The notes under the pieces were generated by a model that saw nothing but the letters and a program-made list of their open reading frames with translations, was not told the DNA's origin and ran no database searches. Position numbers and translations under genes: made by a program. Positions 1,125 to 25,337 of a stretch of DNA of 38,412 bases are shown piece by piece; position 1 is the first letter of the stretch; each line of letters begins with the position of its first letter. The stretch covers positions 147,476 to 185,887 of the forward strand of contig KQ959277.1 of the NCBI GenBank assembly GCA_001552775.1, read 5' to 3'. The stretch is from Bacteroidales bacterium KA00251. Lineage in GTDB: Bacteria > Bacteroidota > Bacteroidia > Bacteroidales > Porphyromonadaceae.

Positions 1125-1132
1125 TAATTTTG
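1125..1132 (+). promoter_or_regulatory. candidate -7 box of the recombinase operon
   Basis: TAATTTTG matches the Bacteroidetes -7 consensus TAnnTTTG and lies about 18 bases before the recombinase start at 1151. No good -33 TTTG is present at the usual spacing, so this is tentative. Confidence 0.35.
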
Positions 1133-1150
1133 CCCATAAAGTTAAAGCGT

Positions 1151-2380
1151 ATGAAGATAGAGAAATTCAAGGTGTTGCTCTACCTGAAAAAGAGCAGACC
1201 CGACAAGTCGGGCAAAGCGCCCATTATGGGACGTATCACCGTCAATCGTTCGATAGTGCAATTCAGTTGCAAAATCTCCTGCACATCCGACCTGTGTAAT
1301 CCTCGTGAAAGCCGTCTGAAAGGTAAGAGCAATGAAGCCGTAGAGGTTAATGCCAAATTGGACAAACTGTTGCTTTCCATCCATGCTGCATTCGACACCT
1401 TGGTAGAACGCAAGGCGGATTTTGATGCAGAAGCCGTCAAGAGTCTGTTTCAGGGAAGCCTCGAAACACAGGTAACATTGCTTGGAATGACGGATGTGGT
1501 CTGTGAAGATTTGAGGAAGCGTATCGGGATAGACCGAGCAAAGGGAACCTACCCTGCCTATATTTATACCCGAAGAACCTTGGCAGAGTTCATCGAAAAG
1601 GAGTTTTGCACCAAAGACGTCGCTTTCGGTCAGATAACGGAACAGTTCATTCATGACTATCAGAGCTTCATCTTGGACGAGAAAGGGCTTGCCATAGATA
1701 CCTGCCGGCACTATTTGGCTATCGTCAAGAAAATATGCCGTAAAGCCTACAAGGACGGTTATGCCGACAGATGTTTTTTCGCTCATTTCAGTCTCCCCAA
1801 ACAAAAGGAGAAGACACCAAAAGCCCTAAGCCGGGAATTCTTCGAGAAAATCCGGGACTTGGTCATTCCCGAACACCGCACTTCCCATATCTTGGCAAGG
1901 GATATCTTCCTTTTCGCCTGCTGTACAGGGACAGCCTACACCGATGCAGTTTCCGTTACGCGTGACAATCTGTTCACGGATGACAATGGCGAGCTGTGGC
2001 TTAAATACTGCCGCAAGAAAAACGAGCTTCGTGCCTGTGTCAAGCTGCTGCCCGAAGCCCTTGACCTGATAGAGAAGTACCGGGATGATGCTCGTCCGAC
2101 CCTCTTTCCAATGCTGTACCATCCCAACCTTCGCCGTCTGATAAAAAGCCTTGCGGTTCTTGCGGGCATTAAGGAAGACCTGACCTACCATGCCGGCAGG
2201 CACTCATTCGCATCGCTGATTACCTTGGAAGCCGGCGTTCCTATCGAGACCATCTGCAAGATGCTGGGACACTCCAACCTCCAGACCACACAGGTATATG
2301 CAAAGGTCACGCCCAAGAAACTCTTCGAGGATATGGACAAATATATCGAAGTGACAAAAGATTTGAAACTTGTATTATAA
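1151..2380 (+). CDS. tyrosine recombinase (integrase) 1 of a tandem pair
   Basis: This 409-residue protein is a phage-type tyrosine recombinase of the Bacteroidetes transposon kind. An arm-binding-like beta region (MKIEKFKVLLYLKKS) is followed by a SAM-like core-binding domain around residues 115-220 and a catalytic domain to the C-terminus. The catalytic boxes visible are YHAGRHSFASL (HxxR), KMLGHSNLQTTQVYAKV (LGH and the tyrosine nucleophile). The usual first arginine after the TG pair is absent (CCTGTAYTDAVSV), as is known for IntDOT-type enzymes. I chose the ATG at 1151 rather than 1130 because the family starts at MKIEKFK. It lies 25 bp before a second recombinase, so the two are probably cotranscribed and may act together. 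Confidence 0.93.
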   Translation: MKIEKFKVLLYLKKSRPDKSGKAPIMGRITVNRSIVQFSCKISCTSDLCNPRESRLKGKSNEAVEVNAKLDKLLLSIHAAFDTLVERKADFDAEAVKSLFQGSLETQVTLLGMTDVVCEDLRKRIGIDRAKGTYPAYIYTRRTLAEFIEKEFCTKDVAFGQITEQFIHDYQSFILDEKGLAIDTCRHYLAIVKKICRKAYKDGYADRCFFAHFSLPKQKEKTPKALSREFFEKIRDLVIPEHRTSHILARDIFLFACCTGTAYTDAVSVTRDNLFTDDNGELWLKYCRKKNELRACVKLLPEALDLIEKYRDDARPTLFPMLYHPNLRRLIKSLAVLAGIKEDLTYHAGRHSFASLITLEAGVPIETICKMLGHSNLQTTQVYAKVTPKKLFEDMDKYIEVTKDLKLVL

Positions 2381-2405
2381 GACCCCATAGATAATAACTG
2401 AATTT

Positions 2406-3593
2406 ATGCGTAGCACATTTTCTTTACTACTCTATATCAATCGCAACAAGGTACGTGTGGATGGCACAACTTCCGTACGTTGCCGAATCTCCATCGACGG
2501 GAAAAGCACGACGATAACCACGGGTATTACTTGCAATCCCAAACAATGGAATGCAAAAAAAGCAGAGACCGCGGACGTGCGGACGAACAACCGCCTGAAA
2601 GAGTTTCGAAAGTATGCGGAGCGGCTCTATGATGAAATGCTCAAAGAGCAGGGTGTGGTCAGTGCCGAACTATTGAAAAACAGGATAGCAGGTCAGGCGG
2701 TCATTCCTACCCATCTGCTCCAAATGGGAGAAAGGGAACGGGAACGCCTTGCCGTCCGTTCCAAGGAAATCGACTCCACTTCGACCTACAGGAGTTCTCG
2801 GTATTACCAGAGCTATATCCGTGAGTTCTTGGACTCGAAAGGCAAGGCGGACATCACCGAGGAATTCGGACGGGAATATAAGGTCTACCTGAAGCGGTAC
2901 AAGAACTTCGGGGCATCGCAGACCAACCATTGCCTTTGTTGGCTGAACAGACTGATATATCTTGCCGTAGACCATGAGATTATCCGTGCCAATCCTTTGG
3001 AAGAGTTGGAGTATGAGAAGAAACCGCCCTCCAAACGAATGCACATCAGCAAAGCGGAACTCAAACAACTGCTAGAACTGAAACTGCCCGCCAATGACCC
3101 ATTGAAGGAATTGGCTCGCAGGGCTTTTATCTTCTCCTGTTTTACGGGACTTGCCTATGTCGATACCCAACTGCTGTATCCACACCATATCGGGCGGACT
3201 GCCGACGATAGAAGATACATTCGCATCAACCGTAAGAAGACGAAAGTGGAGTCATTTATCCCTCTGCATCCGATAGCGGAGCAGATACTTGATTTGTACA
3301 ATACGACCGATGACACGCAGCCGATCTTCCCTTTGCCAAGCAGAGACATGATGTGGTTTGAGATACACGAACTGGGCGTCATTATCGGACGCAAAGAGAA
3401 TCTGTCCTACCATCAAGCCCGGCACAGTTTCGGATCGTTCTTGATTTCCGAGGGGATTTGTACGGAGAGCATTGCCAAGATGATGGGACATGCCTCCATC
3501 ACCAGCACGCAGACCTATGCGAAGATTTCAGAGAAGAAGATTGCAGAGGATATGGATAAGTTAATCGAAAGAAGAAAAAACAATGAATATTGA
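2406..3593 (+). CDS. tyrosine recombinase (integrase) 2 of a tandem pair
   Basis: The 395-residue protein has the same architecture as its upstream neighbour but is clearly a diverged paralogue, not a copy. The N-terminal strand region FSLLLYINRNKVRVDGTTSV resembles the common Bacteroidetes integrase arm domain. The catalytic boxes are YHQARHSFGSF, KMMGHASITSTQTYAKI and a first box CFTGLAYVD, again lacking the first arginine. Paired recombinases at the end of an element occur in several Bacteroidetes transposons, where both may be required for recombination. The next gene starts only 6 bp after its stop, so these three genes form one operon. Confidence 0.93.
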   Translation: MRSTFSLLLYINRNKVRVDGTTSVRCRISIDGKSTTITTGITCNPKQWNAKKAETADVRTNNRLKEFRKYAERLYDEMLKEQGVVSAELLKNRIAGQAVIPTHLLQMGERERERLAVRSKEIDSTSTYRSSRYYQSYIREFLDSKGKADITEEFGREYKVYLKRYKNFGASQTNHCLCWLNRLIYLAVDHEIIRANPLEELEYEKKPPSKRMHISKAELKQLLELKLPANDPLKELARRAFIFSCFTGLAYVDTQLLYPHHIGRTADDRRYIRINRKKTKVESFIPLHPIAEQILDLYNTTDDTQPIFPLPSRDMMWFEIHELGVIIGRKENLSYHQARHSFGSFLISEGICTESIAKMMGHASITSTQTYAKISEKKIAEDMDKLIERRKNNEY

Positions 3594-4019: not shown

Positions 4020-5717
4020 TTACTGCATCAACAGCAGTTTGCAGTACATTCCGTCTTTTGCTGCAAGTTCTGAATGCGTCCCGTTCTCTACAATGCGACC
4101 CTTGTCCATCACGATAATCTGATTAGCATTGCGAATGGTTTGCAGGTGATGGGCTATGACCAAAACTGTACGATTTCGGATAAGGGCGGACATCGCCTGT
4201 TGTATCTTATATTCATTGACAGGATCGACATTGCTCGTTATCTCGTCCAAAAGAATGATGGGAGCATCTTTTAGGAACGCACGGGCGATTGAAAGCCTTT
4301 GTTTCTGCCCTCCAGATAGTCCCAAACCGTTTTCTCCGATTTTTGTTTCATAACCTTCCGGCAGACTGACGATAAAATCGTGTATCATCGCCCGTCGTGC
4401 AGCTTCCTCGATTTCTTCCTGCGTAGCATTGCGGTTGCCCACTTTGATATTATTGGCAATGGTATCTGAAAAGAGAATAACATTCTGCATCACTACACTG
4501 ATTTTACCGAGTAGATAATCATAGTCCATTTCTCGAATGTCTATACCACCGATACGAATACTGCCGGTCTGCGGTTCCCAGAAACGGAGTAACAGGTTGG
4601 TAATGGTTGTTTTACCAGAACCTGACGAGCCAACAAGTGCCGTTACCGTTCCTTCGGGAACATGGAACGTGAGATCTTTCATCTCAAAACCTTCCTTCTC
4701 ATAATGGAAACCAACTTTGTCAAAGGAAAGATTGAAATGGGTTGCTGTTTTCGGCTGTTCAGGATTGGTGATAACAGGGGCATTCAACAAATGGGAAATG
4801 CGTCCGTAGCTGTCCTTTACCTTGATGTAATTCAGCCAATGACTTTCTATATTGACAAAAGGCTTGTAGAATTCTTTTGAGACGATGATAAACATTAAAT
4901 AAGCGAAAAGAGAAAGTTCACCTTGCTGTGTCCACCAAAGACCGATTGTAGCCATCAGAGCGAAAGCCAATTCTATCAAAAAAGTGTATCTACCCACACT
5001 TACAGCAGCCAAACGGGAAATATTCTTACTGCTTTCTCCAAATTCACTGACAGAGTGGTCGAGTCTGTCACGGAACATTCCTTTTCCTCCAAACACTTTC
5101 AAAACTGGGATGCCCTTGACATATTCAACAAAGAGGCTAACCATATCCGCCAGATTATCCTGTGATTCCTCTTGTGCTTTCATTCCCGAGCGAATACCCC
5201 GATACAGAGAAAATAGGGCAATGGGGAGAATGGCTACCATCGTCAATCCCATGCGCCAATCCACACAGAACAGCCCGATGCCAAGTATCAGCGCCACAAT
5301 GAAATCGGCGGACATTCGCGTCCAAAGATGCCCCACCACCATCTCCATATTATCAACGTCTTTGTGAATGACTGTACTTATCTCTCCCAGACGCTCATTG
5401 GTATAGAAACCGAGTGAGAACATTTTCAATTTCAATATGATTTTCTCGCGGATACGTTCCACAAGATCAAATCCGGCAAAATGCTTACTCATATCGGCAA
5501 TGGCATTGGATATGGTTTTCAAGACCAGCAGACCACCCAGTACCCATGCTACCGAAATGAAAGAGATGCTTTCTCCTTGTATATGACGGTCGATGAGAAA
5601 CAAGACTGTGAGCATTATCGCCGTGCCACAAAGGGCATAAACCACGAAAAACAGTGCGGAGATAATTAGATGCCGCACTCCGCTAGCGGTCAATTCATTC
5701 AGTATATTGCGTACCAT
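4020..5717 (-). CDS. ABC transporter, fused permease-ATPase, second of a pair
   Basis: About 565 residues: an N-terminal six-helix ABC membrane domain of the exporter fold, then a nucleotide-binding domain. The ATPase motifs are complete: Walker A VGSSGSGKTT, Q-loop region VMQNVILF, signature LSGGQKQR, Walker B IILLDEITSNVD and H-loop VIAHHLQT. I chose the ATG at 5717 (MVRNILNEL) because a strong GAGGAGG site sits just ahead of it and it follows the upstream gene's stop by two bases; a longer frame to 5747 would overlap. Paired fused half-transporters beside a TonB receptor and an AraC regulator resemble the YbtP/YbtQ siderophore importers, so I infer ferric-siderophore or related import as a heterodimer with the upstream product. 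The family also contains exporters, and direction cannot be read from sequence. Confidence 0.88.
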   Translation of the reverse strand: MVRNILNELTASGVRHLIISALFFVVYALCGTAIMLTVLFLIDRHIQGESISFISVAWVLGGLLVLKTISNAIADMSKHFAGFDLVERIREKIILKLKMFSLGFYTNERLGEISTVIHKDVDNMEMVVGHLWTRMSADFIVALILGIGLFCVDWRMGLTMVAILPIALFSLYRGIRSGMKAQEESQDNLADMVSLFVEYVKGIPVLKVFGGKGMFRDRLDHSVSEFGESSKNISRLAAVSVGRYTFLIELAFALMATIGLWWTQQGELSLFAYLMFIIVSKEFYKPFVNIESHWLNYIKVKDSYGRISHLLNAPVITNPEQPKTATHFNLSFDKVGFHYEKEGFEMKDLTFHVPEGTVTALVGSSGSGKTTITNLLLRFWEPQTGSIRIGGIDIREMDYDYLLGKISVVMQNVILFSDTIANNIKVGNRNATQEEIEEAARRAMIHDFIVSLPEGYETKIGENGLGLSGGQKQRLSIARAFLKDAPIILLDEITSNVDPVNEYKIQQAMSALIRNRTVLVIAHHLQTIRNANQIIVMDKGRIVENGTHSELAAKDGMYCKLLLMQ

Positions 5718-5719
5718 TC

Positions 5720-7465
5720 TTATTCCTCCTCTTCTTTTAATTGCCATTTACTTACTTGTTCTTGCGTTTCCGTCATATTGCGGTACAGAGAACAGTCTTT
5801 CATCAGTTCTTGGTGTGTTCCTTTTGACACAACCTGTCCTTTGTCCATGACAACAATACGCTCCATATCCTGAATGGTATTGAGACGGTGAGCAATGGTA
5901 ATGACGGTCTTGTTGCGCTGCAATTCTTCAAGAGCTTCTTGGATTAATTTCTCATTCTCTCCGTCCAATGCGGCAGTGGCTTCATCGAGAATAACTATTG
6001 GAGAGTCTTTGAGCAACATTCGGGCGATGGAAATACGCTGTTTTTCTCCGCCAGAGAATTTTACGCCGGCTTCGCCTGCCAGCGTATCATAACCATTCGG
6101 CAAGCCCATGATAAAATCATGAATACGAGCACGCTCTGCTGCCATTTCCACTTCCTTTTGTGTGGCGGTAGGTTTTCCTATACGAATATTGTCCCGAATA
6201 GTTGTGTTAAAGAGAAAAACCTCCTGCTGTACCATCGAAAAATAATCTGCGATATTACGTTCGGAGAGTTCCGTAATATTCTCTCCTCCCAGTCGGATAG
6301 TCCCTGTTTGAGGGTACCAGAACCCCATCATCAAACTTGCCAGCGTGGTTTTTCCCGACCCAGACTCGCCGACGATAGCAGTATGGCTTCCTCTCGGAAA
6401 TTGAAGACATACATCTTTCAACGCATTGTCTTTCTTGTTTGGATAGGAGAATGTAACATGCTCGAAACAAACATCCGTCTGTGTCGTATCTGTTTTCTTG
6501 TCCGCAGTTTCCTTTGTCTGTACCTCTGTAATGGACTGTACTTTTGCCAACGACTGACCATAGATGATTCGGAAATGTTGGAATGTAGCCAACTTAGCAA
6601 AGGAGGACGAGAACAATCCGCCCAATATCAAGGCAAGGATAAAACGAGCTACAGTTAATTCGCCCAAACTCATCATCCATAGTCCAATTAGAGTCATTAC
6701 CACGATACCACCTTCCAAGAACATCGTTATCAATGTCATGGGAACGGTAACGCTAAACATGCTCCGCTTTACCCAACGGATGTAGTCGCGCATACCATCA
6801 AGTACCCGTTTCGTTCTGTTCTCCTCGTTACTGAAGGCTTTGATTACCGATATGGTAGCCACATATTCCAAAAGGTCTTCCGACATTTTTTGCGTACTTT
6901 CCATAAAGTGTTGAAAGCTCCTTCCCCAAAGTGTTTTGACAGCCATTTGCAGAAGAAATGCTACAGGCAAAAGAGAAATGAGCGACAGCCCCAAACGCCA
7001 GTCTAACACCATAATGATTACCCAGAGTAAGGCTGGAAAAAGCGTAGCCGAAAGGATTTCGGGTAATCCATGTGCTAAATAAATTTCAATTTGTTCCACA
7101 TCGTGGTTAATAATATTCACCAAGTCACCAACTTTCCGTTCTTGAAAGAAACCGAGCGGCAAGCGTTGCAGATGACTTATGATACGCAACCTCAATCGTG
7201 TAAGGACATTGTAAGCCGACCGGTGTGCCCGCCAAATTGAGGTTCCATAGAATACGCCTCTAAGCATTGCCAACAGTATCATTATTCCTCCAATACTCCA
7301 AACTATTATGGGAGAGAATGTACTATTCATCAACTTGTCAACCGCCCACACTACAAGCAGTATAGGGAGTGTGCCTAAAATAAGGTGCAATATAACCACA
7401 GCATTGGAGAGCAGGCTACGGCTCTCCCGTTCCTCATCAAGATGTCTGACTTTTTGTTTATCCAT
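5720..7465 (-). CDS. ABC transporter, fused permease-ATPase, first of a pair
   Basis: About 581 residues with the same layout as its partner: membrane domain of about 330 residues, then an ATPase with Walker A VGESGSGKTT, signature FSGGEKQR (a relaxed version of LSGGQ), Walker B IVILDEATAALD and H-loop TIAHRLNT. All catalytic residues appear intact, so both sites of the predicted heterodimer could hydrolyse ATP. The start at 7465 (MDKQKVRHL) is preferred; the frame is open 15 codons further but that would run into the promoter. The promoter lies in the divergent region with the TonB receptor gene and carries the shared box described at 7494-7528, linking this operon to the receptor and the AraC regulator. 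Confidence 0.9.
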   Translation of the reverse strand: MDKQKVRHLDEERESRSLLSNAVVILHLILGTLPILLVVWAVDKLMNSTFSPIIVWSIGGIMILLAMLRGVFYGTSIWRAHRSAYNVLTRLRLRIISHLQRLPLGFFQERKVGDLVNIINHDVEQIEIYLAHGLPEILSATLFPALLWVIIMVLDWRLGLSLISLLPVAFLLQMAVKTLWGRSFQHFMESTQKMSEDLLEYVATISVIKAFSNEENRTKRVLDGMRDYIRWVKRSMFSVTVPMTLITMFLEGGIVVMTLIGLWMMSLGELTVARFILALILGGLFSSSFAKLATFQHFRIIYGQSLAKVQSITEVQTKETADKKTDTTQTDVCFEHVTFSYPNKKDNALKDVCLQFPRGSHTAIVGESGSGKTTLASLMMGFWYPQTGTIRLGGENITELSERNIADYFSMVQQEVFLFNTTIRDNIRIGKPTATQKEVEMAAERARIHDFIMGLPNGYDTLAGEAGVKFSGGEKQRISIARMLLKDSPIVILDEATAALDGENEKLIQEALEELQRNKTVITIAHRLNTIQDMERIVVMDKGQVVSKGTHQELMKDCSLYRNMTETQEQVSKWQLKEEEE

Positions 7466-7493: not shown

Positions 7494-7528
7494 CAAAAGT
7501 ACGGCAACAAACAGGGATAAAATAACCC
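7494..7528 (-). promoter_or_regulatory. promoter of the ABC operon with GGGTTATTT box
   Basis: On the minus strand the box GGGTTATTT (7528 down to 7520) is followed after exactly 18 nt by TACTTTTG (7501-7494), a match to the Bacteroidetes -7 element. The box stands where the -33 element should be. The surrounding bases form an imperfect inverted repeat, AGGGATAAAATAACCC at 7513-7528. The same arrangement occurs at two other promoters of this island, so I infer an activator site, most simply for the AraC protein encoded at 11379. Confidence 0.65.
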
Positions 7529-7603
7529 CGATAAGCATTACACTGCCCTAAAACAACAATTTGCTCGCATATAAACACAACAGGGGTATAAGCGTGTATA
7601 ATA

Positions 7604-7638
7604 GGGTTATTTATTTGCTAGGAAGGTAAGTACCTTTG
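7604..7638 (+). promoter_or_regulatory. promoter of the TonB receptor operon with GGGTTATTT box
   Basis: GGGTTATTT (7604-7612), 18 nt, then the -7 element TACCTTTG (7631-7638), 26 bases before the receptor start codon. The spacing is identical to that of the divergent ABC promoter. The intergenic region between the two start codons is about 200 bp and holds both promoters and additional CCC/GGG half-sites such as CCCTAAAACAA at 7546-7556. Confidence 0.65.
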
Positions 7639-7664
7639 CACAGAATCTCACAAACAAATATGAT

Positions 7665-10040
7665 ATGTCAATCAGCTCAATAGTCCATTTATACAAAAGA
7701 ATGCTCATTGTCGGCTTTCTATCGTTGTGCTCTTTTCCTATGTTTGCACAACTGCAACCAATAGAAATAAAAGTTATTGATGCAGAAAATGGGAACAGTA
7801 TAGAATTTGCCGCCGTACAATGGAAAGGTTTGAATGCTCCAACGTACACGAATGGTACGACTACAAACAGGAAAGGTATTGCAAAACTAAATGCATCAAG
7901 TAATCAAAAACTTATGCTTATGGTAAGTTATGTCGGTTATCAGACCATTACCGATACGATTACTGCAAATGGGAAGCGTTATACCATAAGACTACTCCCG
8001 GAATCAACAGAGCTAGCAAATGTAGTCGTAGTAGGAAAAACAAGAGCACAAATACTCAGAGAGTCGCCTGAAGCAATTTCTGTAATAAATGCAAAAGAAC
8101 TTCAAGGCAGATCTATTTCGTTAGAAACCGTTTTGAATAAAACCATAGGTTTGAAAGTTGGGCAGACTGGCGGTTTGGGAAGCAGTTCGAGAATTATTGT
8201 TCATGGATTGGAAGGAAACCGCATTCAAATCTTATGGGACGGAATACCAATGAGTACTTCTGACGGGGCTTTTTCTCTTGATGAAATTCCGATAGACATT
8301 ATAGAAAGAATAGAAGTCTATAAGAGTATCATACCCGCTCGTTTCGGATGTGATGGATTGGGGGGAGCCGTCAACATCGTTACTAAAGAGTTTAGTACGG
8401 ATTATTTAGATACCTCGTATGAATTCGGATCTTACCAAACACACAAAGGAAGTGTCTTCTCTCGCAAGAATTTTCCAAAGAGTGGCATTCTACTCGGTGC
8501 GGGAGGTTATTATACATCTGCAAAGAATGACTACTCTTTCAGAGTTCCCGAGAGAGAAAATCTGTTGGTAAGACGTGACCATGACCATTTTCGTTCGTAT
8601 ATGTTGAAGGGAAAAATTGCTTTCACGAAACTTTGGTTCAATGAGATTAGTACCGAGTTCGGGTATTACAATCGTTTCAATGAAATCCAAGGTATCTTAA
8701 AAAACATACAACATGCCGAAAACCAATCAGGAATGTTTATGTTGGAAAACAAATTGATAAAAAGCGGAATGCTGAACGACCGCCTTAACTTTGAGTCCCA
8801 TTTCTCCCTTTCACATACCACAAACAATTTTGTGGATACGGCACGAGTTAATCACGATTTCGAGGGAAACATATATCCGAGTCCGAATGGACAGGGAGAA
8901 ACAGGGGATGTTCCTCACAACTTGAATGACAAAGGATTGGAAATCAATGAACGTATCAATTTTGATTACAAGTTGTCCGCCAATCACAGTTTGAATCTGA
9001 ACACACTTATTAACTACGCCAGAAGACAACCGAGCGACAACATTGCAAGTCAGTATGCTGGTTTTGTTATCGGAGGATTTCCCAGCAAAAAGACCAGTGT
9101 CATTTCGGGGTTGACTTGGGAGTCAAAACTCTTTGATAAGAAACTGACGAATATGCTCTCCGCAAAGTATTTCCACCTCCATTCCGAGATAGAAGATTTG
9201 ACTTCATACGAGATGATTGAGGCTCCGAAGAAAAAGAACAATACGACTTCACAAATAGGCTGGATAGAGGCAATAAAATACGAGCCCTTCAGAGGTTTTC
9301 ACTTGAAAGCATCTTACCAGCGGGCAATACGCCTTCCCAATTCACAAGAACTATTCGGTGATGGTATCATCACCTTTCCTGCAGCCGGATTGAGACCAGA
9401 GAAAAGCCACAACTTCAATCTGGGGTTCTTAATAGACAAAAATGATGTCCTCGGATTATCGCGATTGCAGTTTGAAGTGAACAGCTTTTATATGCAGGTA
9501 AGCGATATGATAAAACTGATGAAACAACACAGGGCAGCCGGATATGTAAACGCAGAAAAGGTACATATTAAAGGTATAGAAACCGAAATAAAATTGGACA
9601 TATCGCCAACGGTCTATGCCTACGGGAACGTAACTTATCAGGACGTCCGCGATGTTTTGGACTATTTGCCCGGCACCCAAGCCCCTAATCCGACAAAAGG
9701 ATTGCGACTGCCGAATATTCCCTACCTGTTTGCCAACTTCGGAGCGGAATACCACAGCGACCGATTGTTCAAAAATTGGTATGTCAAGGCATTCTGGGAC
9801 GGGAAGTTCACGGAAGAGTTCTTCTACTTTTGGGAACTTACTGAATTGCAGAAACGACGTATTCCTCGCAGTTTCGTCAATGATATTGGTCTGCTATTGA
9901 CCTACAAGAACAAATATTCCATCGCTTTGGAATGCCACAACCTGATGAATAAAGAAGTGTGGGACCAGTTCCGCCAACCGTTGGCAGGACGGACACTTTA
10001 CCTCAAATTCAGATATGTCTTCTCAAAAGGAATTTTCTAA
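7665..10040 (+). CDS. TonB-dependent outer-membrane receptor
   Basis: The 791-residue protein has a signal peptide (hydrophobic LIVGFLSLCSFPMFAQ), a carboxypeptidase-like regulatory domain (about residues 35-110, including SYVGYQTI), a plug domain with LPESTELANVVVVGKTRAQI, GGLGSSSRIIVHGLEGNRIQILWDG and GGAVNIVTKEF, and a long beta-barrel ending in the aromatic residues of KFRYVFSKGIF. This is the class that imports ferric siderophores, haem or cobalamin across the outer membrane using TonB energy. There is no SusD-like partner; instead a lipoprotein gene follows 18 bp later. With the divergent ABC pair and the AraC regulator I infer siderophore-type iron uptake; haem or another metal chelate remains possible. 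Confidence 0.92.
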   Translation: MSISSIVHLYKRMLIVGFLSLCSFPMFAQLQPIEIKVIDAENGNSIEFAAVQWKGLNAPTYTNGTTTNRKGIAKLNASSNQKLMLMVSYVGYQTITDTITANGKRYTIRLLPESTELANVVVVGKTRAQILRESPEAISVINAKELQGRSISLETVLNKTIGLKVGQTGGLGSSSRIIVHGLEGNRIQILWDGIPMSTSDGAFSLDEIPIDIIERIEVYKSIIPARFGCDGLGGAVNIVTKEFSTDYLDTSYEFGSYQTHKGSVFSRKNFPKSGILLGAGGYYTSAKNDYSFRVPERENLLVRRDHDHFRSYMLKGKIAFTKLWFNEISTEFGYYNRFNEIQGILKNIQHAENQSGMFMLENKLIKSGMLNDRLNFESHFSLSHTTNNFVDTARVNHDFEGNIYPSPNGQGETGDVPHNLNDKGLEINERINFDYKLSANHSLNLNTLINYARRQPSDNIASQYAGFVIGGFPSKKTSVISGLTWESKLFDKKLTNMLSAKYFHLHSEIEDLTSYEMIEAPKKKNNTTSQIGWIEAIKYEPFRGFHLKASYQRAIRLPNSQELFGDGIITFPAAGLRPEKSHNFNLGFLIDKNDVLGLSRLQFEVNSFYMQVSDMIKLMKQHRAAGYVNAEKVHIKGIETEIKLDISPTVYAYGNVTYQDVRDVLDYLPGTQAPNPTKGLRLPNIPYLFANFGAEYHSDRLFKNWYVKAFWDGKFTEEFFYFWELTELQKRRIPRSFVNDIGLLLTYKNKYSIALECHNLMNKEVWDQFRQPLAGRTLYLKFRYVFSKGIF

Positions 10041-10058
10041 TCTAACAAATATAAAAAG

Positions 10059-11240
10059 ATGAATACAACAATTTTTAATCGTATAGCTTTTTCTGCTATG
10101 CTGGTCGGCTTCATAGGGCTGACATCTTGTAACAAAAATGATGAACCTACGCCTACTCCTCAAGAGGTTCAGCAACATTTCACCTTTGTGCATTATGTGG
10201 ACAAAAGTGCTTATGTAGGGACATTCGGTGATTTGACACCTCAAGCCACCGACAACAAGAAAGCATTCGAATTTGGCTTTGGGTGTTATCTCTTCGCAAA
10301 AGGAAACACGGTACTTGTGCCCGAAGGGAAATTCGGAGATAAGGTACACAAGTTTACAAGAGGGGCGCACGGCGAGCTGCAAAAAGCAGGTACGATAACT
10401 TTTGAACAGATGGCTCAACCCGGAGAAATCAACTTCATCGACGAACAGCGGGCATACGTTGCTTTGCACGGCAGGGGCAAGATTGCGCTAATCAATACCG
10501 CCACGTTACAAAAAGAAGATGAAATCGATATCTCGCCTTATGCCGTTCAGGACAATAATCCCGATCCCGGTTGCAACGTCATTCGAGACGGAAAGATGTA
10601 CGTAGCCCTCAACCAGCTCAACTCTTTCATCACCTCCGTACCGGGGACGGGTGCAGAGGTGGCTGTTATTGACCTTAAAACGAAAAAGACCGAAATCATC
10701 AAAGACAGTCGCACAAGTGTTGTCGGATTGTTCCGCCATTCAGACGCATTCATAGACGAGCGGGGCGACATCTACTTTTACAGTGCGGGCAACAACTTCA
10801 ACGTTGCCAATAAGGAAGGTTTCCTGCGTATCCGCAAAGGAAGCGACCAATGGGACACCGACTACCTGTTCAACCTGTCAAAGACAACCATAAAAGGGAT
10901 TGGCAAAACGGGACAGTATATGATTAAGTCTTACTATGCGGGCAATGGCATTGTATATAGTTGCTTGAAAGTAACGGACACTGAATTCGGAATACTCAAG
11001 AAAGACTTTCAACCCGTGAAAATCGACATTTGGAACAAAACCATCGAAAAACTCGATTTGCCGATGACCGACAGCAATGGCTCTTTTGCCATAACTCGCT
11101 ACAAGGATTTCATCGTCTTCGGAATGACCTGCAATAACGGCACAGGCTACTACACCTACAATACAAAGACGGGCGAATGCTCGCAAACACCCGTTGTTAC
11201 TTCCGTGGGAGTACCTTCAAGTTTAGTCGCGTTTGAGTAA
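10059..11240 (+). CDS. surface-type lipoprotein, DUF4374-like beta-propeller (XusB-like)
   Basis: The 393-residue protein has a lipoprotein signal with the lipobox LTSC (cysteine 24), followed by NKNDE, an acidic stretch compatible with export to the cell surface in Bacteroidetes. The body has repeated short beta-strand units (for example INFIDEQRAYVALHGRGKIALINTATL, IRDGKMYVALNQL, AEVAVIDLKTKKTEII) typical of a beta-propeller. I assign it to the DUF4374-type family found beside TonB receptors. From memory, XusB of Bacteroides thetaiotaomicron, which captures ferric enterobactin at the surface, belongs here, but I could not check this. It is cotranscribed with the receptor and ends at a strong terminator, so I infer that it hands substrate to the receptor. 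Confidence 0.78.
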   Translation: MNTTIFNRIAFSAMLVGFIGLTSCNKNDEPTPTPQEVQQHFTFVHYVDKSAYVGTFGDLTPQATDNKKAFEFGFGCYLFAKGNTVLVPEGKFGDKVHKFTRGAHGELQKAGTITFEQMAQPGEINFIDEQRAYVALHGRGKIALINTATLQKEDEIDISPYAVQDNNPDPGCNVIRDGKMYVALNQLNSFITSVPGTGAEVAVIDLKTKKTEIIKDSRTSVVGLFRHSDAFIDERGDIYFYSAGNNFNVANKEGFLRIRKGSDQWDTDYLFNLSKTTIKGIGKTGQYMIKSYYAGNGIVYSCLKVTDTEFGILKKDFQPVKIDIWNKTIEKLDLPMTDSNGSFAITRYKDFIVFGMTCNNGTGYYTYNTKTGECSQTPVVTSVGVPSSLVAFE

Positions 11241-11250
11241 ATCCATATCG

Positions 11251-11287
11251 CAAGAGTATTCCCTCAAACAGGAATACTCTTGTTTTT
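11251..11287 (+). terminator. Rho-independent terminator after the receptor-lipoprotein operon
   Basis: CAAGAGTATTCC (11251-11262) pairs perfectly with GGAATACTCTTG (11271-11282), followed by five T. It ends the TonB receptor and lipoprotein transcript and separates it from the AraC gene. Confidence 0.92.
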
Positions 11288-11303
11288 ATAGAGCATGTGA
11301 TTC

Positions 11304-11347
11304 AACAAGGATAAAAGTATAAGAAAATCTTCTTTTTTATCCTTGTT
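11304..11347. promoter_or_regulatory. 13-bp inverted repeat upstream of the AraC gene
   Basis: AACAAGGATAAAA (11304-11316) and TTTTATCCTTGTT (11335-11347) are perfect reverse complements separated by 18 nt. The repeat lies just before the AraC start codon and has no T-run, so an operator is more likely than a terminator. The half-site AAGGATAAAA resembles AGGGATAAAA in the ABC promoter, which suggests autoregulation. Confidence 0.55.
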
Positions 11348-11378
11348 TATTTGTAAATTTACGGAAAGGTATAATGAT

Positions 11379-12359
11379 ATGACCATAGAATTTTGTGCAA
11401 TCAATAAGCCAGAAGACTGGATCGAGATGGTTGCCGAGCAATTCGGCACATCGGTAACGAATGATGGGTTTACCGTTCCGCCCTCAGTGGGCAACGGCTT
11501 TTTCAAGCAATACTATCCGTTGCCATGGCTCACATTGACCTATATCAGTTTCATGTCGTATGAACCGATGACAATGGTGCGTCGCTCGGTGGAAAACTCG
11601 AAATGGATTCCCGTGATGTTCTACATCAACGAGCATAAACATGAACAGATTATCGGCACAAGCACAAAAACGGTCGGGGTGGACACGCTTGACGGTATCT
11701 TTATGCCTTCAAGCAATATCCCTACGGAGTGGACTTTCGCTCCTAAACGACAGTATGAAAACATCACACTGACTTTCAACAAGGATTGGATAGAGCAAAT
11801 GGATACGGCTTGCGAAACCTATATCGGTCGGTTGTTCCAGTCGGACAAATCTTTTTATCTCTTCGAAACTATCACACCTGCGATGCAACAAGTATCGTAT
11901 AGCATCAAGGCGATAGCCAAAAGCAATGCACCTTTCTCTCCCCTCCATCTGCACGGAAAGGCAATAGAACTGCTGACAATATTCCTTGAAAAACTCGAAA
12001 AGCGTTCGGAAGTAAAATCTCTTTCCAACTTAAATTTGAACGATGTGGAGGCTGTCTTCCGTGTCCGTCGTCAGATTTTACAAAGTTTGAACAACGTACC
12101 GAGCATTCCCGAACTGGCACGTGAAGTAGCAATGAGCAGTTCAAAACTACAAAAATGCTTCAAACAGGTCATAGGCAAGGCGATTGCCGAATATGCCCTA
12201 TCCGAAAAGATGGAATGGGCGAAACGACTACTCTCAACTCGTCTCTATTCGGTATCCGAAGTGGGCTATAAAATCGGATATGCCAATCTCAGCCACTTCA
12301 CGGAGGCTTTCCGCAAATATCACAGGATAAATCCCAAGCAATACCTTGACTCTTTGTAA
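11379..12359 (+). CDS. AraC-family transcriptional regulator
   Basis: The 326-residue protein ends in a complete AraC/XylS DNA-binding domain: first helix-turn-helix around SIPELAREVAMSSSKLQKCFKQVIG and second around SVSEVGYKIGYANLSHFTEAFRKYHRINPKQY. The N-terminal about 220 residues resemble the sensory part of PchR/YbtA-like regulators that respond to siderophores, but this similarity is by context rather than by a motif I can name. I chose the ATG at 11379, preceded by GGAAAGG, over an open frame to 11343 that would run through the inverted repeat. It follows the receptor and lipoprotein genes and is the obvious regulator of the divergent ABC and receptor operons. Confidence 0.9.
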   Translation: MTIEFCAINKPEDWIEMVAEQFGTSVTNDGFTVPPSVGNGFFKQYYPLPWLTLTYISFMSYEPMTMVRRSVENSKWIPVMFYINEHKHEQIIGTSTKTVGVDTLDGIFMPSSNIPTEWTFAPKRQYENITLTFNKDWIEQMDTACETYIGRLFQSDKSFYLFETITPAMQQVSYSIKAIAKSNAPFSPLHLHGKAIELLTIFLEKLEKRSEVKSLSNLNLNDVEAVFRVRRQILQSLNNVPSIPELAREVAMSSSKLQKCFKQVIGKAIAEYALSEKMEWAKRLLSTRLYSVSEVGYKIGYANLSHFTEAFRKYHRINPKQYLDSL

Positions 12360-12393
12360 GTTTTACACAATAGGGATATTACTTATCGTTTAA

Positions 12394-12428
12394 GGGTTAT
12401 TTTACCCTAAGCAATCTTCCGAACTTTG
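12394..12428 (+). promoter_or_regulatory. third GGGTTATTT promoter, upstream of the 77-aa gene
   Basis: GGGTTATTT (12394-12402), 18 nt, then GAACTTTG (12421-12428), which matches the -7 element except for its first base. The box is inside a near-perfect inverted repeat AGGGT-TATTTT-ACCCT (12393-12408). Spacing is the same as in the two other promoters of the island. Confidence 0.55.
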
Positions 12429-12448
12429 CCTGAAAATCATCAGGCAAT

Positions 12449-12682
12449 ATGAAAAGACTTATCAAAAAAGAATCCTTTGAGATGCTATCCTCCAGTAAAA
12501 GCATGGAAGCAACCGACGACCTTATCAGAGAAATTATAAAGTTGGGGGATAGTGAAGAAAATCTTGTTTCATTGTTTCGCACATTGAACTTTACTCGATT
12601 CCATTTAAGAGGTATGGTTGAAAAAATAGGTATAACAACCGAAATGGGGAAAAAATGTATCGGAACTGCTCTGTGTTATTGA
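12449..12682 (+). CDS. small hypothetical protein in the AraC regulon
   Basis: I do not recognise this 77-residue protein. It is soluble-looking, with a charged N-terminus (MKRLIKKESFEMLSSSKSME) and a predicted helical middle (ATDDLIREIIKLGDSEENLVSLFRTLNF). No signal peptide or membrane helix is seen. Its interest is its position: it starts 20 bases after a promoter that carries the same box and spacing as the transporter and receptor promoters, so it is probably expressed with them. The following rteC fragment is in another frame and seems unrelated. Confidence 0.5.
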   Translation: MKRLIKKESFEMLSSSKSMEATDDLIREIIKLGDSEENLVSLFRTLNFTRFHLRGMVEKIGITTEMGKKCIGTALCY

Positions 12683-12710
12683 CACAGAGTTGCTATTGTT
12701 GAGGATGCGA

Positions 12711-13031
12711 ATGCAGGGGCTTCTTCCTGCTTTGCCAGTCAGACCTGCGAAGAAACTCCGTTGGACAGGCAGGGCAACAGACTTGGTCGAACTACTCTAT
12801 GCACTCGATACCTATGGCTGTATTAACGATGGTGAAATTGGTATAGAAGAATTGGCAGATGCCTTTTCTGAAATCTTGGGTGTAGAAATCAAGAACTGCT
12901 ACAACGTCTATATGAACATGAAACACCGCAAGGATGACAGTCGCACCTATTTCCTTGATGACCTCCGAGTGAAAATGAACAAACGAATGGTTGAGAGTGA
13001 CCTGAAAGGCGGAAAATACAAGAAACGATAA
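12711..13031 (+). pseudogene. rteC: C-terminal fragment of the conjugation regulator RteC
   Basis: The fragment contains LRWTGRATDLVELLYALDTYGCINDGEIGIEELADAFSEILGV and MNMKHRKDDSRTYFLDDLRVKMNKRMVESD, the conserved C-terminal module of RteC, the regulator that activates excision genes of CTnDOT-type transposons. Full RteC is about 280-300 residues; only about 107 remain, so about two thirds are missing from the N-terminus. The ATG at 12711 has a GAGG six bases upstream and might allow expression of the stub. I read it as a deletion scar rather than a working regulator. It is followed by a strong terminator. Confidence 0.8.
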
Positions 13032-14907: not shown

Positions 14908-17484
14908 ATGAACAGAGGATCGGAATGGCGTATTTGGGACTTGCATTTTCATACTCCCTCATCTTATGACTATAAAGATAATAGTGTAAAAAATCAGGAT
15001 ATTATAAATATCTTGAGTGAAAACAATGTTTCTGTTGTTGCGATAACAGACCATCACGTTATTGATATAGAGCGAATACAAGATTTACAAAGATTGGGGA
15101 AAGAAAAAAATATCGTAGTTCTTCCTGGAATTGAATTCTGTTCAGAACTTGGAGGCTCTGAAGCAATACATTTTATAGGAATTTTTCCAGAGACAGCTAA
15201 CCTGAATACAATATGGACGAAAATTCAGGGACAGTGTAATCTGACACCAGAAGAAATTGATTCAAAAGGACAAGAGCGAATTGTGTGCTCTTTTGAAAAA
15301 ACAAGTTCTCTGATAATAGAATTAGGAGGCCTTGTTACAATACACGCTGGTAAGAAATCTAACTCTATAGAGGGCATAAAAAATAATTTGCTTGTAAAAC
15401 AAGAATTTAAACAGCAATTATTATCAACCTATCATCCTCTTTTGGAGGTCGGGAAAATCGAAGATGTAGAAAGCTACAAATCTCATGTGTTTCCTAATAT
15501 ACAATTTTCTTTACCTATTATTATGTGTTCAGATAATCATAATATTCGAGAATACACCACAAAAGAAAAACTGTGGATTAAAGCTGCAACAACATTTGAA
15601 GGGCTAAAACAGATCTTATTTGAACCTGAGGATAGAGTAAGGATTCAGACGACAAAACCTGATGAGAAGAATATTTATCAAGTAATTGATAGCATAACTT
15701 TAGATGAGAATGAATTTTGGCATGGAAATATCTTTCTTAATCCTAATTTAAATACGATTGTAGGAGGACGTTCGACAGGAAAATCTTCCTTACTCAAAGC
15801 TATTGCTGCTAAGCATGGAAATAAAGAAGTTGAAGAAAATGACTTTATCAGACAACACCTTAATGGCATATCTATTCGATGGCAGGATGGAAATGATCAA
15901 CTTGGCCGTGAAATAGAATATTTTCGACAAAGTTATATGCATGATATTGCTTTTGATTCAGAAAAGACAAATAGGATAGTTGATAACATTATAAAAGACA
16001 AAGATGAAGCGGGCTTATTGAAAGCTTACAATGAGCATCTTTCTGAAATTTCTAAAAAAATATCAGAGGACGTTTTTTCTGTCTTCCAAATGCAAAATGA
16101 TATAGTTTCTGTAACAAAGTCTTTGTCTGAAAAAGGGAACAAAGATGGTGTCGTAAAACAGTTAAATCTATTAAAGTCAAAAGCAACTGATTTACAAAAG
16201 GGAAGTGAATTGTCGCCAGAAGAAAGGATGTCCTTTGATGCGTACTTACATCAAATCCAAGAAAAAAAGAAACAAATAGCTGAAGCAGACAATGATTTAG
16301 GATTACTGAATAACATGAAGAATGTCACTCCTTTTGAACCTACTTTCAAGGACAAGTGGCAATTTAATCAATTATCATTTCCATTGAATCAGTATGATAT
16401 TGATCGACTGTACGATGATTTGAAGGTACAGACTGAGACAGAATGGGGTAACATTGTTCAACAGTTCATCGAAAAGACCTCAAAAGCAAAAGAACAAATA
16501 AGTACAGATATTCAAACCATAATGGCTTATGATGTCTATAAGAAAGGGATACAATCTTTTGAAGGCAATAAGGAATTGAAGGATATTAATGGCAAAATAA
16601 TTGAAGAAGAGAAAAACCTTGAAATTATTAATGGGTTGCAAAGTAGGCTTGAGCATATAAGAAAGTTGCGTAATTCTCTTATTCAAAAAATGATTGACGC
16701 TCATTGTTCTTATAAAATGATGGCAAGAGAAATATGTAATACATTAGAGATTTCCTATGATGGACTTGATATTTCTGTCAGTCTAACATTTCACAAGAAA
16801 GAGTTACAGGAATTCTTAGAAAGTAGGCTTAACCTACGTGGGAATGAACGTCAAGAATACTTGAAAACGTTACTAAACAGATACGATGACGATAATAAAT
16901 CATGCAGCATAGATTTCCTGAAAAATCTTCTTTTAGAGAATATCTTACTAAAGAATGGATATGAAGCTTTAAATGTTGCAATTGAATTTTTCACTCGTAA
17001 TTGGTATAGTCTTGATTATAGCTTAACCTATCAGGGAGATGCGTTTGTAAACATGTCGGAAGGAAAACAGGCTTTTGTTATTCTAAAATTACTCTTAGAT
17101 TTTAGTGATAAGAAATGTCCAATACTTATAGACCAACCAGAGGACAGCCTTGATAATCGTGCAATTTATCATGAATTAGTAGCATACATCAAACGGAAAA
17201 AGAAAGAACGACAAATAATATTGGTGACGCACAATTCCAATGTTGTGGTAAGTGCAGACGCAGAAAATGTAATTGTAGCTAATCAAGAAGGTGCGGATAC
17301 ACCTAATTTAGGAGGTCTAAAATTTCAATATATCAACGGAGCTTTGGAAGACACCAAGCAAAGAGACGAAAATGCTGAGCATATATTATCTTCACAAGGT
17401 ATCCGTGAACACATATGTGATATTTTGGAAGGAGGGCGTATTGCTTTTGAGAAACGTGAACAAAAATATGGCTTTAGAAGATAG
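14908..17484 (+). CDS. PHP-domain plus SMC/AAA-like ATPase, TrlF-like, putative defence protein
   Basis: The 858-residue protein has two parts. Residues 1-240 are a PHP metallo-phosphoesterase domain with its metal ligands visible: HFH (13, 15), DHH (48-50), GIE (76), H88, TIHAG (146) and SDNH (209, 211). From about 270 it is an ATPase of the SMC/ABC type: Walker A GGRSTGKSS (286-294), a long coiled-coil-like middle, a signature-like MSEGKQAFV, Walker B CPILIDQPEDSLDN and a switch region ILVTHNSNVV. I believe this matches what databases call the TrlF family. PHP plus SMC-like ATPases are frequent in defence islands; an ATP-gated nuclease or phosphatase is the likely activity. All active-site residues look intact. 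The gene is AT-rich compared with the element backbone and stands alone. Confidence 0.85.
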   Translation: MNRGSEWRIWDLHFHTPSSYDYKDNSVKNQDIINILSENNVSVVAITDHHVIDIERIQDLQRLGKEKNIVVLPGIEFCSELGGSEAIHFIGIFPETANLNTIWTKIQGQCNLTPEEIDSKGQERIVCSFEKTSSLIIELGGLVTIHAGKKSNSIEGIKNNLLVKQEFKQQLLSTYHPLLEVGKIEDVESYKSHVFPNIQFSLPIIMCSDNHNIREYTTKEKLWIKAATTFEGLKQILFEPEDRVRIQTTKPDEKNIYQVIDSITLDENEFWHGNIFLNPNLNTIVGGRSTGKSSLLKAIAAKHGNKEVEENDFIRQHLNGISIRWQDGNDQLGREIEYFRQSYMHDIAFDSEKTNRIVDNIIKDKDEAGLLKAYNEHLSEISKKISEDVFSVFQMQNDIVSVTKSLSEKGNKDGVVKQLNLLKSKATDLQKGSELSPEERMSFDAYLHQIQEKKKQIAEADNDLGLLNNMKNVTPFEPTFKDKWQFNQLSFPLNQYDIDRLYDDLKVQTETEWGNIVQQFIEKTSKAKEQISTDIQTIMAYDVYKKGIQSFEGNKELKDINGKIIEEEKNLEIINGLQSRLEHIRKLRNSLIQKMIDAHCSYKMMAREICNTLEISYDGLDISVSLTFHKKELQEFLESRLNLRGNERQEYLKTLLNRYDDDNKSCSIDFLKNLLLENILLKNGYEALNVAIEFFTRNWYSLDYSLTYQGDAFVNMSEGKQAFVILKLLLDFSDKKCPILIDQPEDSLDNRAIYHELVAYIKRKKKERQIILVTHNSNVVVSADAENVIVANQEGADTPNLGGLKFQYINGALEDTKQRDENAEHILSSQGIREHICDILEGGRIAFEKREQKYGFRR

Positions 17485-18745: not shown

Positions 18746-19425
18746 ATGAAATCACGAATAGCTATACCACAGTTGGCAAAAGTAAGAGCCATACTTCAGA
18801 AAGAAATAGGATCAGTTTGTCCTTTTTGTCAAAATGACGATGTTGGACATTTTGAGATTCATCATATAGATGAGAATCCTACACACAACGAAATGGGGAA
18901 TTTACTTTTGCTTTGTCCTACTTGTCATTCAAAGATTACCAAAGGCGATATTACAAGTATTGATGTGTACAAAAAGAAACTTTCGCTTTTAACCGCTCCG
19001 ATATCAAACAAAAGCAATTCTGGGAAAATTGTAAACTTTAATAATAATGTGGAAAATGCCATTGTCGGAGACAATAATAATATCTCAATAAATCAGACGA
19101 AGAAAACGGTAAAACAAAAATATCCAAAAGGCTGTATAGGTTTTGATACGATAAAAGCAAACTATTTCGGACATCTAATTAAACGATATAATGAATATAA
19201 AGAGTATGAGGTGGGAAAAGAAAATATGAATTATGCAGCATTTTCCTCTCATCTAAAAAACGATACAAAATAGGTCCTACAAGGACTCTCTATAATTTAC
19301 CAATTGAGAAATTTGAGGAATTAACAGTATATATTCAAACTAGAATAGACAAAACAACACTTGCTAAAATGAAAGGGCGAGGACATAAAAACTACTCAAC
19401 ATTCTCAGAATATGCAAATGAATAG
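18746..19425 (+). pseudogene. HNH endonuclease interrupted by a frameshift in an A tract
   Basis: The first frame (18746-19273) encodes 175 residues with a zinc-finger HNH nuclease module: CPFC (25-28), IHHIDENPTHNEMGNLLLLC and CPTCHSKIT (57-65), where H39/H40, N52 and H61 would form the active site. A beta-rich stretch VNFNNNVENAIVGDNNNISINQ follows. At AFSSHLK the frame ends a few codons later, but the frame one base over continues KKRYKIGPTRTLYNLP and then TRIDKTTLAKMKGRGHKNYS to a TAG at 19423-19425. One missing A in the six-A run near 19254-19259 explains this. So it is a frameshifted gene, a sequencing error or a slippage site. The nuclease module lies before the shift. Confidence 0.75.
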
Positions 19426-19631
19426 GTTCGTAAATGAGTTGCATTTGGTGTAATTTTTGTACATGTATGGTAATGTGTAAACTTGGAACTTTGTGTTCTA
19501 TACCATATGGTAGAGAGTAAAGTTAAGCTTTAAAGCATTGTGTCCAGTCAAAGATAGGCTCTTAATTATTATCTATCGAAATTCATTACTCACATTCTTT
19601 TGTGTACTTTTAAGTCGATTATAAATACATA

Positions 19632-20612: not shown

Positions 20613-20618
20613 TACTTT

Positions 20619-25246: not shown

Positions 25247-25250
25247 GTTG

Positions 25251-25337
25251 CGGAAGCGGGGGGATTCGAACCCCCGGTACAGTAACCCGTACGACAGTTT
25301 AGCAAACTGTTGGTTTCAGCCACTCACCCACACTTCC
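25251..25337 (-). tRNA. tRNA-Ser(GCU)
   Basis: On the minus strand the acceptor arms are GGAAGTG and CGCTTCC with discriminator G, the D-arm region is GGGTGAGTGGCTGAAACC, the anticodon arm is ACAGT-TTGCTAA-ACTGT with anticodon GCT, a long variable arm follows, and the T arm is CCGGGGGTTCGAATCCCCC. It is 87 nt, a class II serine tRNA reading AGC/AGU. The CCA end is not encoded. Mobile DNA lies directly on its 3' side, the usual side for integration. A -7 box TACCTTTG is at 25370-25363 on the minus strand. Confidence 0.95.

What the first reader, a model, noticed from the sequence alone, without database searches (positions are those of the whole stretch)
7494..12428. Three promoters share GGGTTATTT exactly 18 nt before a -7 box: a predicted AraC regulon
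GGGTTATTT-N18-TAnnTTTG is found before the ABC operon (7528-7494, minus), before the TonB receptor (7604-7638) and, with one mismatch in the -7 box, before a 77-aa gene (12394-12428). The box replaces the -33 element, as expected for a class II activator. The AraC gene lies within the same island. This gives a testable operator for a mobile metal-uptake cassette and adds an unknown small gene to it.
Basis: partly seen in the sequence, partly recalled or inferred. Interest (0 to 1): 0.75.

Follow-up and report, generated by a model that had tools for sequence, protein, structure and literature searches.

The report
AraC operator controls mobile siderophore-uptake island
A mobile DNA island in mouth bacteria carries genes that look built to steal other microbes' iron carriers, apparently switched on through one conserved DNA address read by the island's own regulator, and in some copies that switch has slid in front of a gene that may control the island's own movement.

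Summary
In detail: GGGTTATTT-N18-TAnnTTTG occurs three times in the window with at most one mismatch, against 0.01 expected. Relatives keep it: 26/26 ABC promoters, 25/25 receptor promoters and 29/35 regions after araC, window included. The box is the promoter-proximal half of a direct repeat with a 21-nt period and lies where the -33 element should be. Beside distant AraC homologues (28-46% identity), some in other orders and before other genes, the bipartite operator adjoins araC in 9 of 10 loci. The AraC-regulon reading is well supported by sequence; binding is untested.

The small gene needs correcting. The 77-aa ORF is the 5' part of an rteC-like element regulator whose selected frame moves +1 at a conserved purine run. 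In other islands the same promoter drives barrel-MMPL-LolA genes; in the window these are deleted and the operator-promoter abuts the rteC-like gene. The cargo resembles XusAB plus a YbtPQ-like ABC importer, so siderophore uptake fits better than metal uptake in general. Boldest reading: siderophore control of island excision.

The parts
7520..7528 (-). proximal operator half-site GGGTTATTT of the ABC operon; -7 box TACTTTTG at 7494-7501
   Evidence: site present in 26/26 ABC promoters examined, window included
7541..7549 (-). distal half-site of the ABC operator, 21 nt upstream (weakest of the three: offset 21 scores 5.10, offset 20 scores 4.95)
   Evidence: direct-repeat offset analysis
7583..7591 (+). 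distal half-site GGGGTATAA of the receptor operator
7604..7638 (+). proximal half-site GGGTTATTT plus -7 box TACCTTTG of the receptor operon
   Evidence: 25/25 receptor promoters examined, window included
12373..12381 (+). distal half-site GGGATATTA of the third operator
12394..12428 (+). proximal half-site GGGTTATTT plus -7 box GAACTTTG of the third promoter
   Evidence: 29/35 post-araC regions, window included
4020..5747 (-). ABC half-transporter 2 (exporter fold; best half-transporter PDB match YbtP 6p6i_A)
5720..7465 (-). ABC half-transporter 1 (best half-transporter PDB match YbtQ 6p6i_B / 8vsi_B)
   Evidence: start codon inferred
7665..10040 (+). TonB-dependent receptor (CarbopepD_reg_2 + Plug + barrel)
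10059..11240 (+). XusB-like lipoprotein, 18 nt behind the receptor gene
   Evidence: PDB 9hqe XusB, E 3.2e-9
11343..12359 (+). AraC-family regulator (HTH_18); first ATG at 11379
12449..12682 (+). the '77-aa gene': frame-A 5' segment of an rteC-like gene (codons up to the run; the last codons are out of the selected frame)
12646..12655 (+). conserved purine run GGGGAAAAAA at which the selected reading frame changes by +1
12656..13031 (+). frame-B 3' segment of the rteC-like gene (RteC C-terminal domain, PF09357 positions 134-219; ORF listed from TTG 12690)
1130..3593 (+). two tyrosine recombinase genes at the left end of the island

Best explanation
The three sites are operators of the island's AraC-family protein. 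Each operator is a direct repeat, GG(G)N(T/C)AT.. - 21-nt period - GGGTTATTT, and the proximal half-site lies where the -33 element should be, 18 nt before the sigma-ABfr -7 box. A dimer bound there would recruit RNA polymerase (class II activation), probably when an imported ferric siderophore or an iron-related signal acts on the N-terminal domain. It would switch on the YbtPQ-like ABC importer, the TonB receptor + XusB-like lipoprotein, and a third operon. In fuller islands the third operon is barrel-MMPL-LolA-like; in the window it was deleted and the operator-promoter now abuts an rteC-like gene read in two frames (the '77-aa gene' plus the RteC C-terminal domain). Shown by sequence: operator conservation, repeat spacing, linkage to araC, the deletion, the frame change. 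Inferred: binding, activation, ligand, transcription starts, and translation across the frame change.
For: 3 matches against 0.01 expected. Site kept in 26/26, 25/25 and 29/35. Among distinct sequences the box and -7 vary least (mean pairwise difference 0.07-0.12 and 0.00-0.14) against 0.25-0.45 in the spacer and 0.39-0.50 in the 5' flank (sites were chosen by box/-7 score, so this is partly selected). The upstream repeat was not used in that choice; offset 21 is the best of offsets 9-41 in each promoter type separately. Beside distant AraC homologues the operator adjoins araC in 9 of 10 loci, with 0-14 of 3000 shuffles as good, before different genes (barrel x3, ABC, receptor-type x2, others); the upstream side is negative in 8 of 8 controls. 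By inspection no TTTG lies at the -33 distance.
Against: No binding, expression or start-site data. Close relatives are recently transferred islands, so not independent. 6 of 35 post-araC regions lack the site (L014, L021, L035, L039, L043, L046); L039 and L043 have it on the divergent side, so two sides were tried for them. The distal half-site is less conserved (0.08-0.26) and for the ABC promoter offset 21 barely beats 20 (5.10 against 4.95). No convincing operator was found before araC itself (the L040 row there is an artefact of a partial gene). The third promoter's -7 box mostly begins GA, not TA, and may be weak. L046 (Brevibacillus, 34% over 132 aa) has none; L125 is modest (14/3000). 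A relaxed pattern gives 9 places in the own genome against 3 for the control pattern; one extra (L076) is intergenic, about 100 nt before a 466-aa ORF, without the distal half-site.
Confidence: 0.85

Rival explanations
1. The box is a site for another factor (for example an iron repressor of the Fur/DtxR type or a host regulator) and AraC is only a neighbour.
For: Related iron loci in Bacteroidota are strongly iron-regulated and carry other regulators: TetR-linked ABC-ABC-MMPL-LolA operons (passages of PMC10434189). Overlap with -33 would also suit a repressor.
Against: The same bipartite site lies beside araC in unrelated genomes and in front of different genes. A 21-nt direct repeat is typical of AraC half-sites (recalled), not of a palindromic Fur box. 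In the own genome the strict pattern gives only these three sites and one inside a gene.
Confidence: 0.1
2. The conservation only reflects recent horizontal spread of one island plus the general promoter consensus; there is no operator.
For: Many islands are 79-98% identical in the regulator, and the -7 box is a general Bacteroidota feature (PMC7366714 passages).
Against: Spacers and flanks diverge while the box and its spacing do not. Distant loci with AraC at 28-46% keep it, with 0-14 of 3000 shuffles as good.
Confidence: 0.04
3. The 77-aa ORF is an independent small gene of the siderophore regulon.
For: It has its own start codon 20 nt after the -7 box, and its TGA is at the same codon in 17 of 19 loci that hold it (not L017, L018).
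Against: After the purine run its frame shows 41 synonymous to 401 non-synonymous pairwise codon differences, against 350:124 in the frame of the RteC domain. In islands with the full operon it lies about 4.7 kb from the operator, in L013 behind a terminator-like inverted repeat. Its N-domain profile, with distant split members, aligns with the N-domain of single-ORF short RteC proteins (hhalign probability 96.8, E 2.3e-10); with the close family alone it does not (4%).
Confidence: 0.12
4. The rteC-like gene is a frame-broken pseudogene, not a two-frame gene.
For: No fused product is shown. The RteC part is missing or interrupted in 2 of 19 loci that hold the 77-aa ORF (L017, L020), and L027-L030 keep only a piece of it without the ORF.
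Against: The frame change sits at the same purine run in the 16 distinct sequences compared, with purifying selection on both sides. More distant split homologues have A7, A8 or G9 tracts at the matching place.
Confidence: 0.3

Closest known systems
Yersiniabactin regulator YbtA with ybtPQ and fyuA/psn
   Same: AraC-type activator on a mobile island next to an exporter-fold ABC pair (closest half-transporter PDB entries are YbtP/YbtQ) and a TonB receptor. YbtA is needed for the ybtP promoter and is a candidate siderophore sensor (PMC10865836, passages).
   Different: No siderophore synthesis genes were recognised among the window proteins scanned. Different phylum, promoter type (sigma-ABfr) and operator (YbtA's own sites not compared here). 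Sensing untested.
Xus xenosiderophore system of Bacteroides (XusA/XusB)
   Same: TonB receptor followed by a lipoprotein matching XusB (9hqe, E 3.2e-9).
   Different: The XusB match covers residues 200-369 only, with no DUF4374 Pfam hit at 0.001; no PepSY protein among those scanned. The main text of PMC13142918 has 0 occurrences of AraC or ABC (find).
TetR-linked ABC-ABC-MMPL-LolA loci of Prevotella intermedia and Porphyromonas gingivalis
   Same: The same gene kinds as the fuller islands, some next to a site-specific integrase, raised 40- to 223-fold (P. intermedia) or 13- to 136-fold (P. gingivalis) in iron depletion (PMC10434189 passages).
   Different: TetR/AcrR instead of AraC; no operator described in the passages seen. 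Sequence kinship to the window's proteins was not tested.
CTnDOT regulator RteC
   Same: The downstream ORF is an RteC C-terminal domain (PF09357 134-219). RteC controls excision and transfer genes of CTnDOT (PMC1976400 passages).
   Different: N-terminal domain different and short; encoded in two frames; made in CTnDOT only with tetracycline through RteA/RteB, here possibly under AraC.

Membership tests
AraC/XylS activator with class II operator | C-terminal AraC-type helix-turn-helix domain | tested here: met
   PF12833 E 8.4e-18
AraC/XylS activator with class II operator | two direct half-sites about two helical turns apart | tested here: met
   offset 21 is the best of 33 offsets in all three promoter types, narrowly for ABC; that AraC itself uses 21 bp is recalled
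AraC/XylS activator with class II operator | proximal half-site overlaps the upstream core promoter element | tested here: met
   box ends 18 nt before the -7 box; by inspection no TTTG at -33 distance (consensus)
AraC/XylS activator with class II operator | binds DNA and activates | not testable with these tools
   needs footprinting or reporters; structure prediction never ran
YbtA-type siderophore regulon | AraC + TonB receptor + exporter-fold ABC pair in one island | tested here: met
YbtA-type siderophore regulon | siderophore biosynthesis genes under the same regulator | tested here: not met
   none recognised among the window proteins scanned; not every ORF of the window was scanned
YbtA-type siderophore regulon | siderophore as co-effector | not testable with these tools
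   inference only
XusAB xenosiderophore uptake | XusB-family (DUF4374) lipoprotein behind a TonB receptor | tested here: inconclusive
   XusB PDB match E 3.2e-9 but no Pfam hit at 0.001
RteC family | PF09357 over its full length | tested here: not met
   positions 134-219 of 219 only; C-terminal domain only
Programmed frameshift gene | conserved slip-prone run with purifying selection in frame A before and frame B after it | tested here: met
Programmed frameshift gene | fused product made | not testable with these tools
   needs a reporter or mass spectrometry

The most novel reading that the evidence does not exclude
The cargo's siderophore-responsive AraC switch has taken over the island's own mobility regulator. 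By deletion of the barrel-MMPL-LolA genes the AraC operator-promoter was fused to an rteC-like excision regulator, itself made through a conserved frame change at a purine run, so that foreign siderophore or iron starvation would trigger both uptake and movement of the island, as tetracycline does for CTnDOT.
Probability: 0.25. Interest if true: 0.82.

Novelty: new variant of a known kind. Interest (0 to 1): 0.62.

Why it matters
It gives a precise operator for an AraC subfamily found in several families and more than one order of Bacteroidota. That makes the regulon of a mobile, probably xenosiderophore-stealing island testable by footprinting, and lets targets be predicted in other genomes. 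It also shows how deletions within an island can put a mobility-regulator homologue next to a cargo promoter, and it exposes a family of split rteC-like genes with homopolymer runs at the domain border, a candidate for frame switching in the control of mobile elements.

Tried and rejected
Rejected: box as a chance match; box as part of a known riboswitch (Rfam at gathering score found only one tRNA in the window); AraC autoregulation (no convincing site before araC); slippage at the 77-aa ORF's TGA itself (codon evidence puts the change upstream, at the purine run). Further regulon members in the own genome: of the hits beyond the three sites, L003/L073, L072 and L075 lie inside ORFs, L071 in the 3' end of an ORF on the other strand, L074 across ORF ends; L076 is intergenic, about 100 nt before a 466-aa ORF, lacks the distal half-site, and is not excluded. 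A search for ABC relatives without AraC as a control gave only three genomes, one the own, and was of no use. A structure of the AraC protein was wanted but never obtained.

Dropped rows: L045 left out of the receptor count because its receptor hit is a fragment counted with the distant loci; one search used 17 sequences, 16 distinct (L013 and L016 alike), and left out L024, L031 and L032 (near copies of L025 and L033) and L017 (frame B diverges after the run).

Not found in print: neither this operator nor an rteC frameshift appeared in the result listings (titles and abstract starts; held open-access library only).
Full report
OBSERVATION. The three sites exist as described. With at most one mismatch the pattern GGGTTATTT-N18-TAnnTTTG has three matches in the window and a shuffled expectation of 0.01. 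At three mismatches it is not specific (1.87 expected), and the 9-mer alone is at chance level with one mismatch. In the own genome the full pattern with at most one mismatch gives one more place, inside an ORF. A relaxed pattern gives nine places against three for its reversed control; one of the extras, L076, is intergenic but lacks the distal half-site.

GENES. The window holds an island with two tyrosine recombinases (1130-3593), an ABC half-transporter pair (7465-4020, minus), a TonB-dependent receptor (7665-10040), a lipoprotein (10059-11240), an AraC-family regulator (11343-12359), the 77-aa ORF and an RteC C-terminal ORF. Both ABC proteins have YbtP/YbtQ as their best half-transporter match among the 60 best solved structures shown, although full-length eukaryotic ABCB proteins score higher. 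The lipoprotein matches XusB (E 3.2e-9). The receptor matches TonB_sider_MxcH below its cut-off and PDB 9gbc. This points to uptake of foreign siderophores; the ligand is unknown.

RELATIVES. A scan with a regulator alignment gave 35 loci, most from named genomes of Prevotella-like genera, Porphyromonas, Bacteroides, Alloprevotella and Tannerella, some from metagenome assemblies. With the window included and only loci that hold the needed stretch counted, the box, the 18-nt spacing and the -7 box are present at 26 of 26 ABC promoters (13-15 of 15 positions), 25 of 25 receptor promoters (14-15) and 29 of 35 regions after araC (12 or more). The six misses are L014, L021, L035, L039, L043 and L046.

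REPEAT. A second copy of the box lies upstream. Comparing box columns with every upstream offset from 9 to 41, offset 21 is best for the receptor (6.00, next 4.89), the third promoter (6.12, next 4.41) and, narrowly, the ABC promoter (5.10, next 4.95 at 20). Over 60 sites, positions -20 G, -19 G and -16 A are 57, 56 and 60 of 60; the matching box positions +1, +2 and +5 are 60, 59 and 60. The distal half-site as a whole is less conserved than the box. By inspection no TTTG sits at the -33 distance, and the box occupies that place. The consensus TTTG / TAnnTTTG is described in PMC7366714 (passages).

INDEPENDENT TEST. For ten loci with distant regulators I scored 300-nt regions on 19 positions. 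Identity to the window's regulator is 37-46% for L008, L039 and L041-L045, 33% (241 aa) for L126, 28% for L125 and 34% over 132 aa for L046. Beside araC the operator scores 15-19 of 19 in L008, L041, L042, L044, L045, L125 and L126 on the downstream side, and 17 in L039 and L043 on the divergent side, where their downstream side is negative; 0 to 14 of 3000 shuffles do as well. L046 is negative; it matches only the DNA-binding third of the protein. The upstream side is negative in eight of eight controls. L125 and L126 were fetched after the motif was fixed; the others had been seen before. Scored over the whole locus, L125 is not significant (68 of 200 shuffles as good) and L126 marginal (3 of 200). 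Targets differ: DUF1302-type barrel genes (L008, L041, L044), an ABC pair (L039), TonB-receptor-type genes (L043, L045), unknown or seemingly unrelated genes (L042, L125, L126). What these loci share is the regulator.

THIRD PROMOTER. In L013, L016, L019, L023, L024, L025 and L026 the third promoter is followed by a DUF1302-type barrel, an MMPL/RND transporter and a LolA-like protein (L026's contig ends inside the last gene and L019's MMPL gene is in two frames). L041 and L044, with distant regulators, have the same order, and L008 begins it, so it is likely ancestral. L012 keeps only the start of the barrel and the end of LolA. In the window, L015, L017, L018, L020, L022 and L040 the promoter is joined directly to the ATG of the 77-aa ORF, with the barrel's leader (GCCTG..CAGGC) retained with small changes. 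In L031-L034 and L036 the ORF starts about 155 nt beyond a weaker site (12 of 15). In L027 the deletion runs from the barrel into RteC (L028-L030 alike by tblastn), and in L038 the promoter is followed by DNA that reads like purB (named by recall). The window's arrangement is thus a promoter fusion by deletion. In two of these seven islands (L017, L020) RteC is missing or broken, so there the promoter cannot serve it.

THE 77-AA ORF. In 17 of 19 loci that hold it, it is followed at a fixed +1 frame offset by an RteC C-terminal domain. Among 16 distinct sequences, pairwise codon differences between the purine run and the TGA are 350 synonymous to 124 non-synonymous in the RteC frame and 41 to 401 in the 77-aa frame; variation peaks at third positions of the RteC frame there (permutation p 0.011) and of the 77-aa frame before the run. 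These pairs are related, so the counts are not independent events. L018 has TGG in place of TGA. More distant split homologues carry A7 (L066), A8 (L056, L081, L085) or G9 (L084) tracts at the matching place, L085 with the other shift, the rest +1, while L096-L099 (L054 is the place of L099) are single ORFs. Profile comparison links the split and single-ORF N-domains (hhalign 96.8%, E 2.3e-10) when the distant split members are included; with the close family alone it does not (4%). Whether the run causes ribosomal or transcriptional slippage, or phase variation, is open.

FUNCTION. Gene sets of the same kind (ABC-ABC-MMPL-LolA) are among strongly iron-starvation-induced loci of P. intermedia and P. 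gingivalis, with TetR regulators, and the xenosiderophore locus BT2063-65 is raised 489- to 676-fold in B. thetaiotaomicron (PMC10434189 passages). CTnDOT RteC controls excision and transfer genes and is made only with tetracycline (PMC1976400 passages). By analogy the window's fusion could tie island movement to the AraC signal; this is inference.

VERDICT. The operator and regulon are well supported by comparative sequence. The small-gene part of the finding is corrected. The link to mobility is a plausible, untested proposal.

Noticed in passing
window 14908-17484: TrlF-family AAA-like ATPase above its NCBIfam cut-off, also similar to the anti-phage protein Ppl below cut-off: the island may carry a defence gene as well.
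   Followed up: no
L084 1710-1718: A run of nine G at the same domain border of an rteC-like gene where the window has GGGGAAAAAA; looks like a phase-variable tract.
   Followed up: partly
window 12428-12445: Short inverted repeat GCCTGAAAATCATCAGGC right after the third -7 box, kept with small changes in most of the sequences printed, before both barrel and 77-aa ORF; possibly a 5'-terminal mRNA hairpin.
   Followed up: no
L038 about 9990-10400: In Tannerella forsythia ATCC 43037 the third operator-promoter is left at the island edge pointing towards DNA that reads like purB (gene named by recall).
   Followed up: no
   Followed up: no
window 25250-25337: tRNA-Ser gene between the island genes and the polysaccharide genes; a possible attachment site, not tested.
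   Followed up: no
window 18746-22550: HNH endonuclease, DUF4238 protein and a 643-aa protein without Pfam match lie together; function unknown.
   Followed up: no
own genome C18:91727-91760 (L076): Intergenic weak match GGATATTC-N18-TACCTTTG about 100 nt before a 466-aa ORF, without the distal half-site; a possible but unlikely further target.
   Followed up: partly
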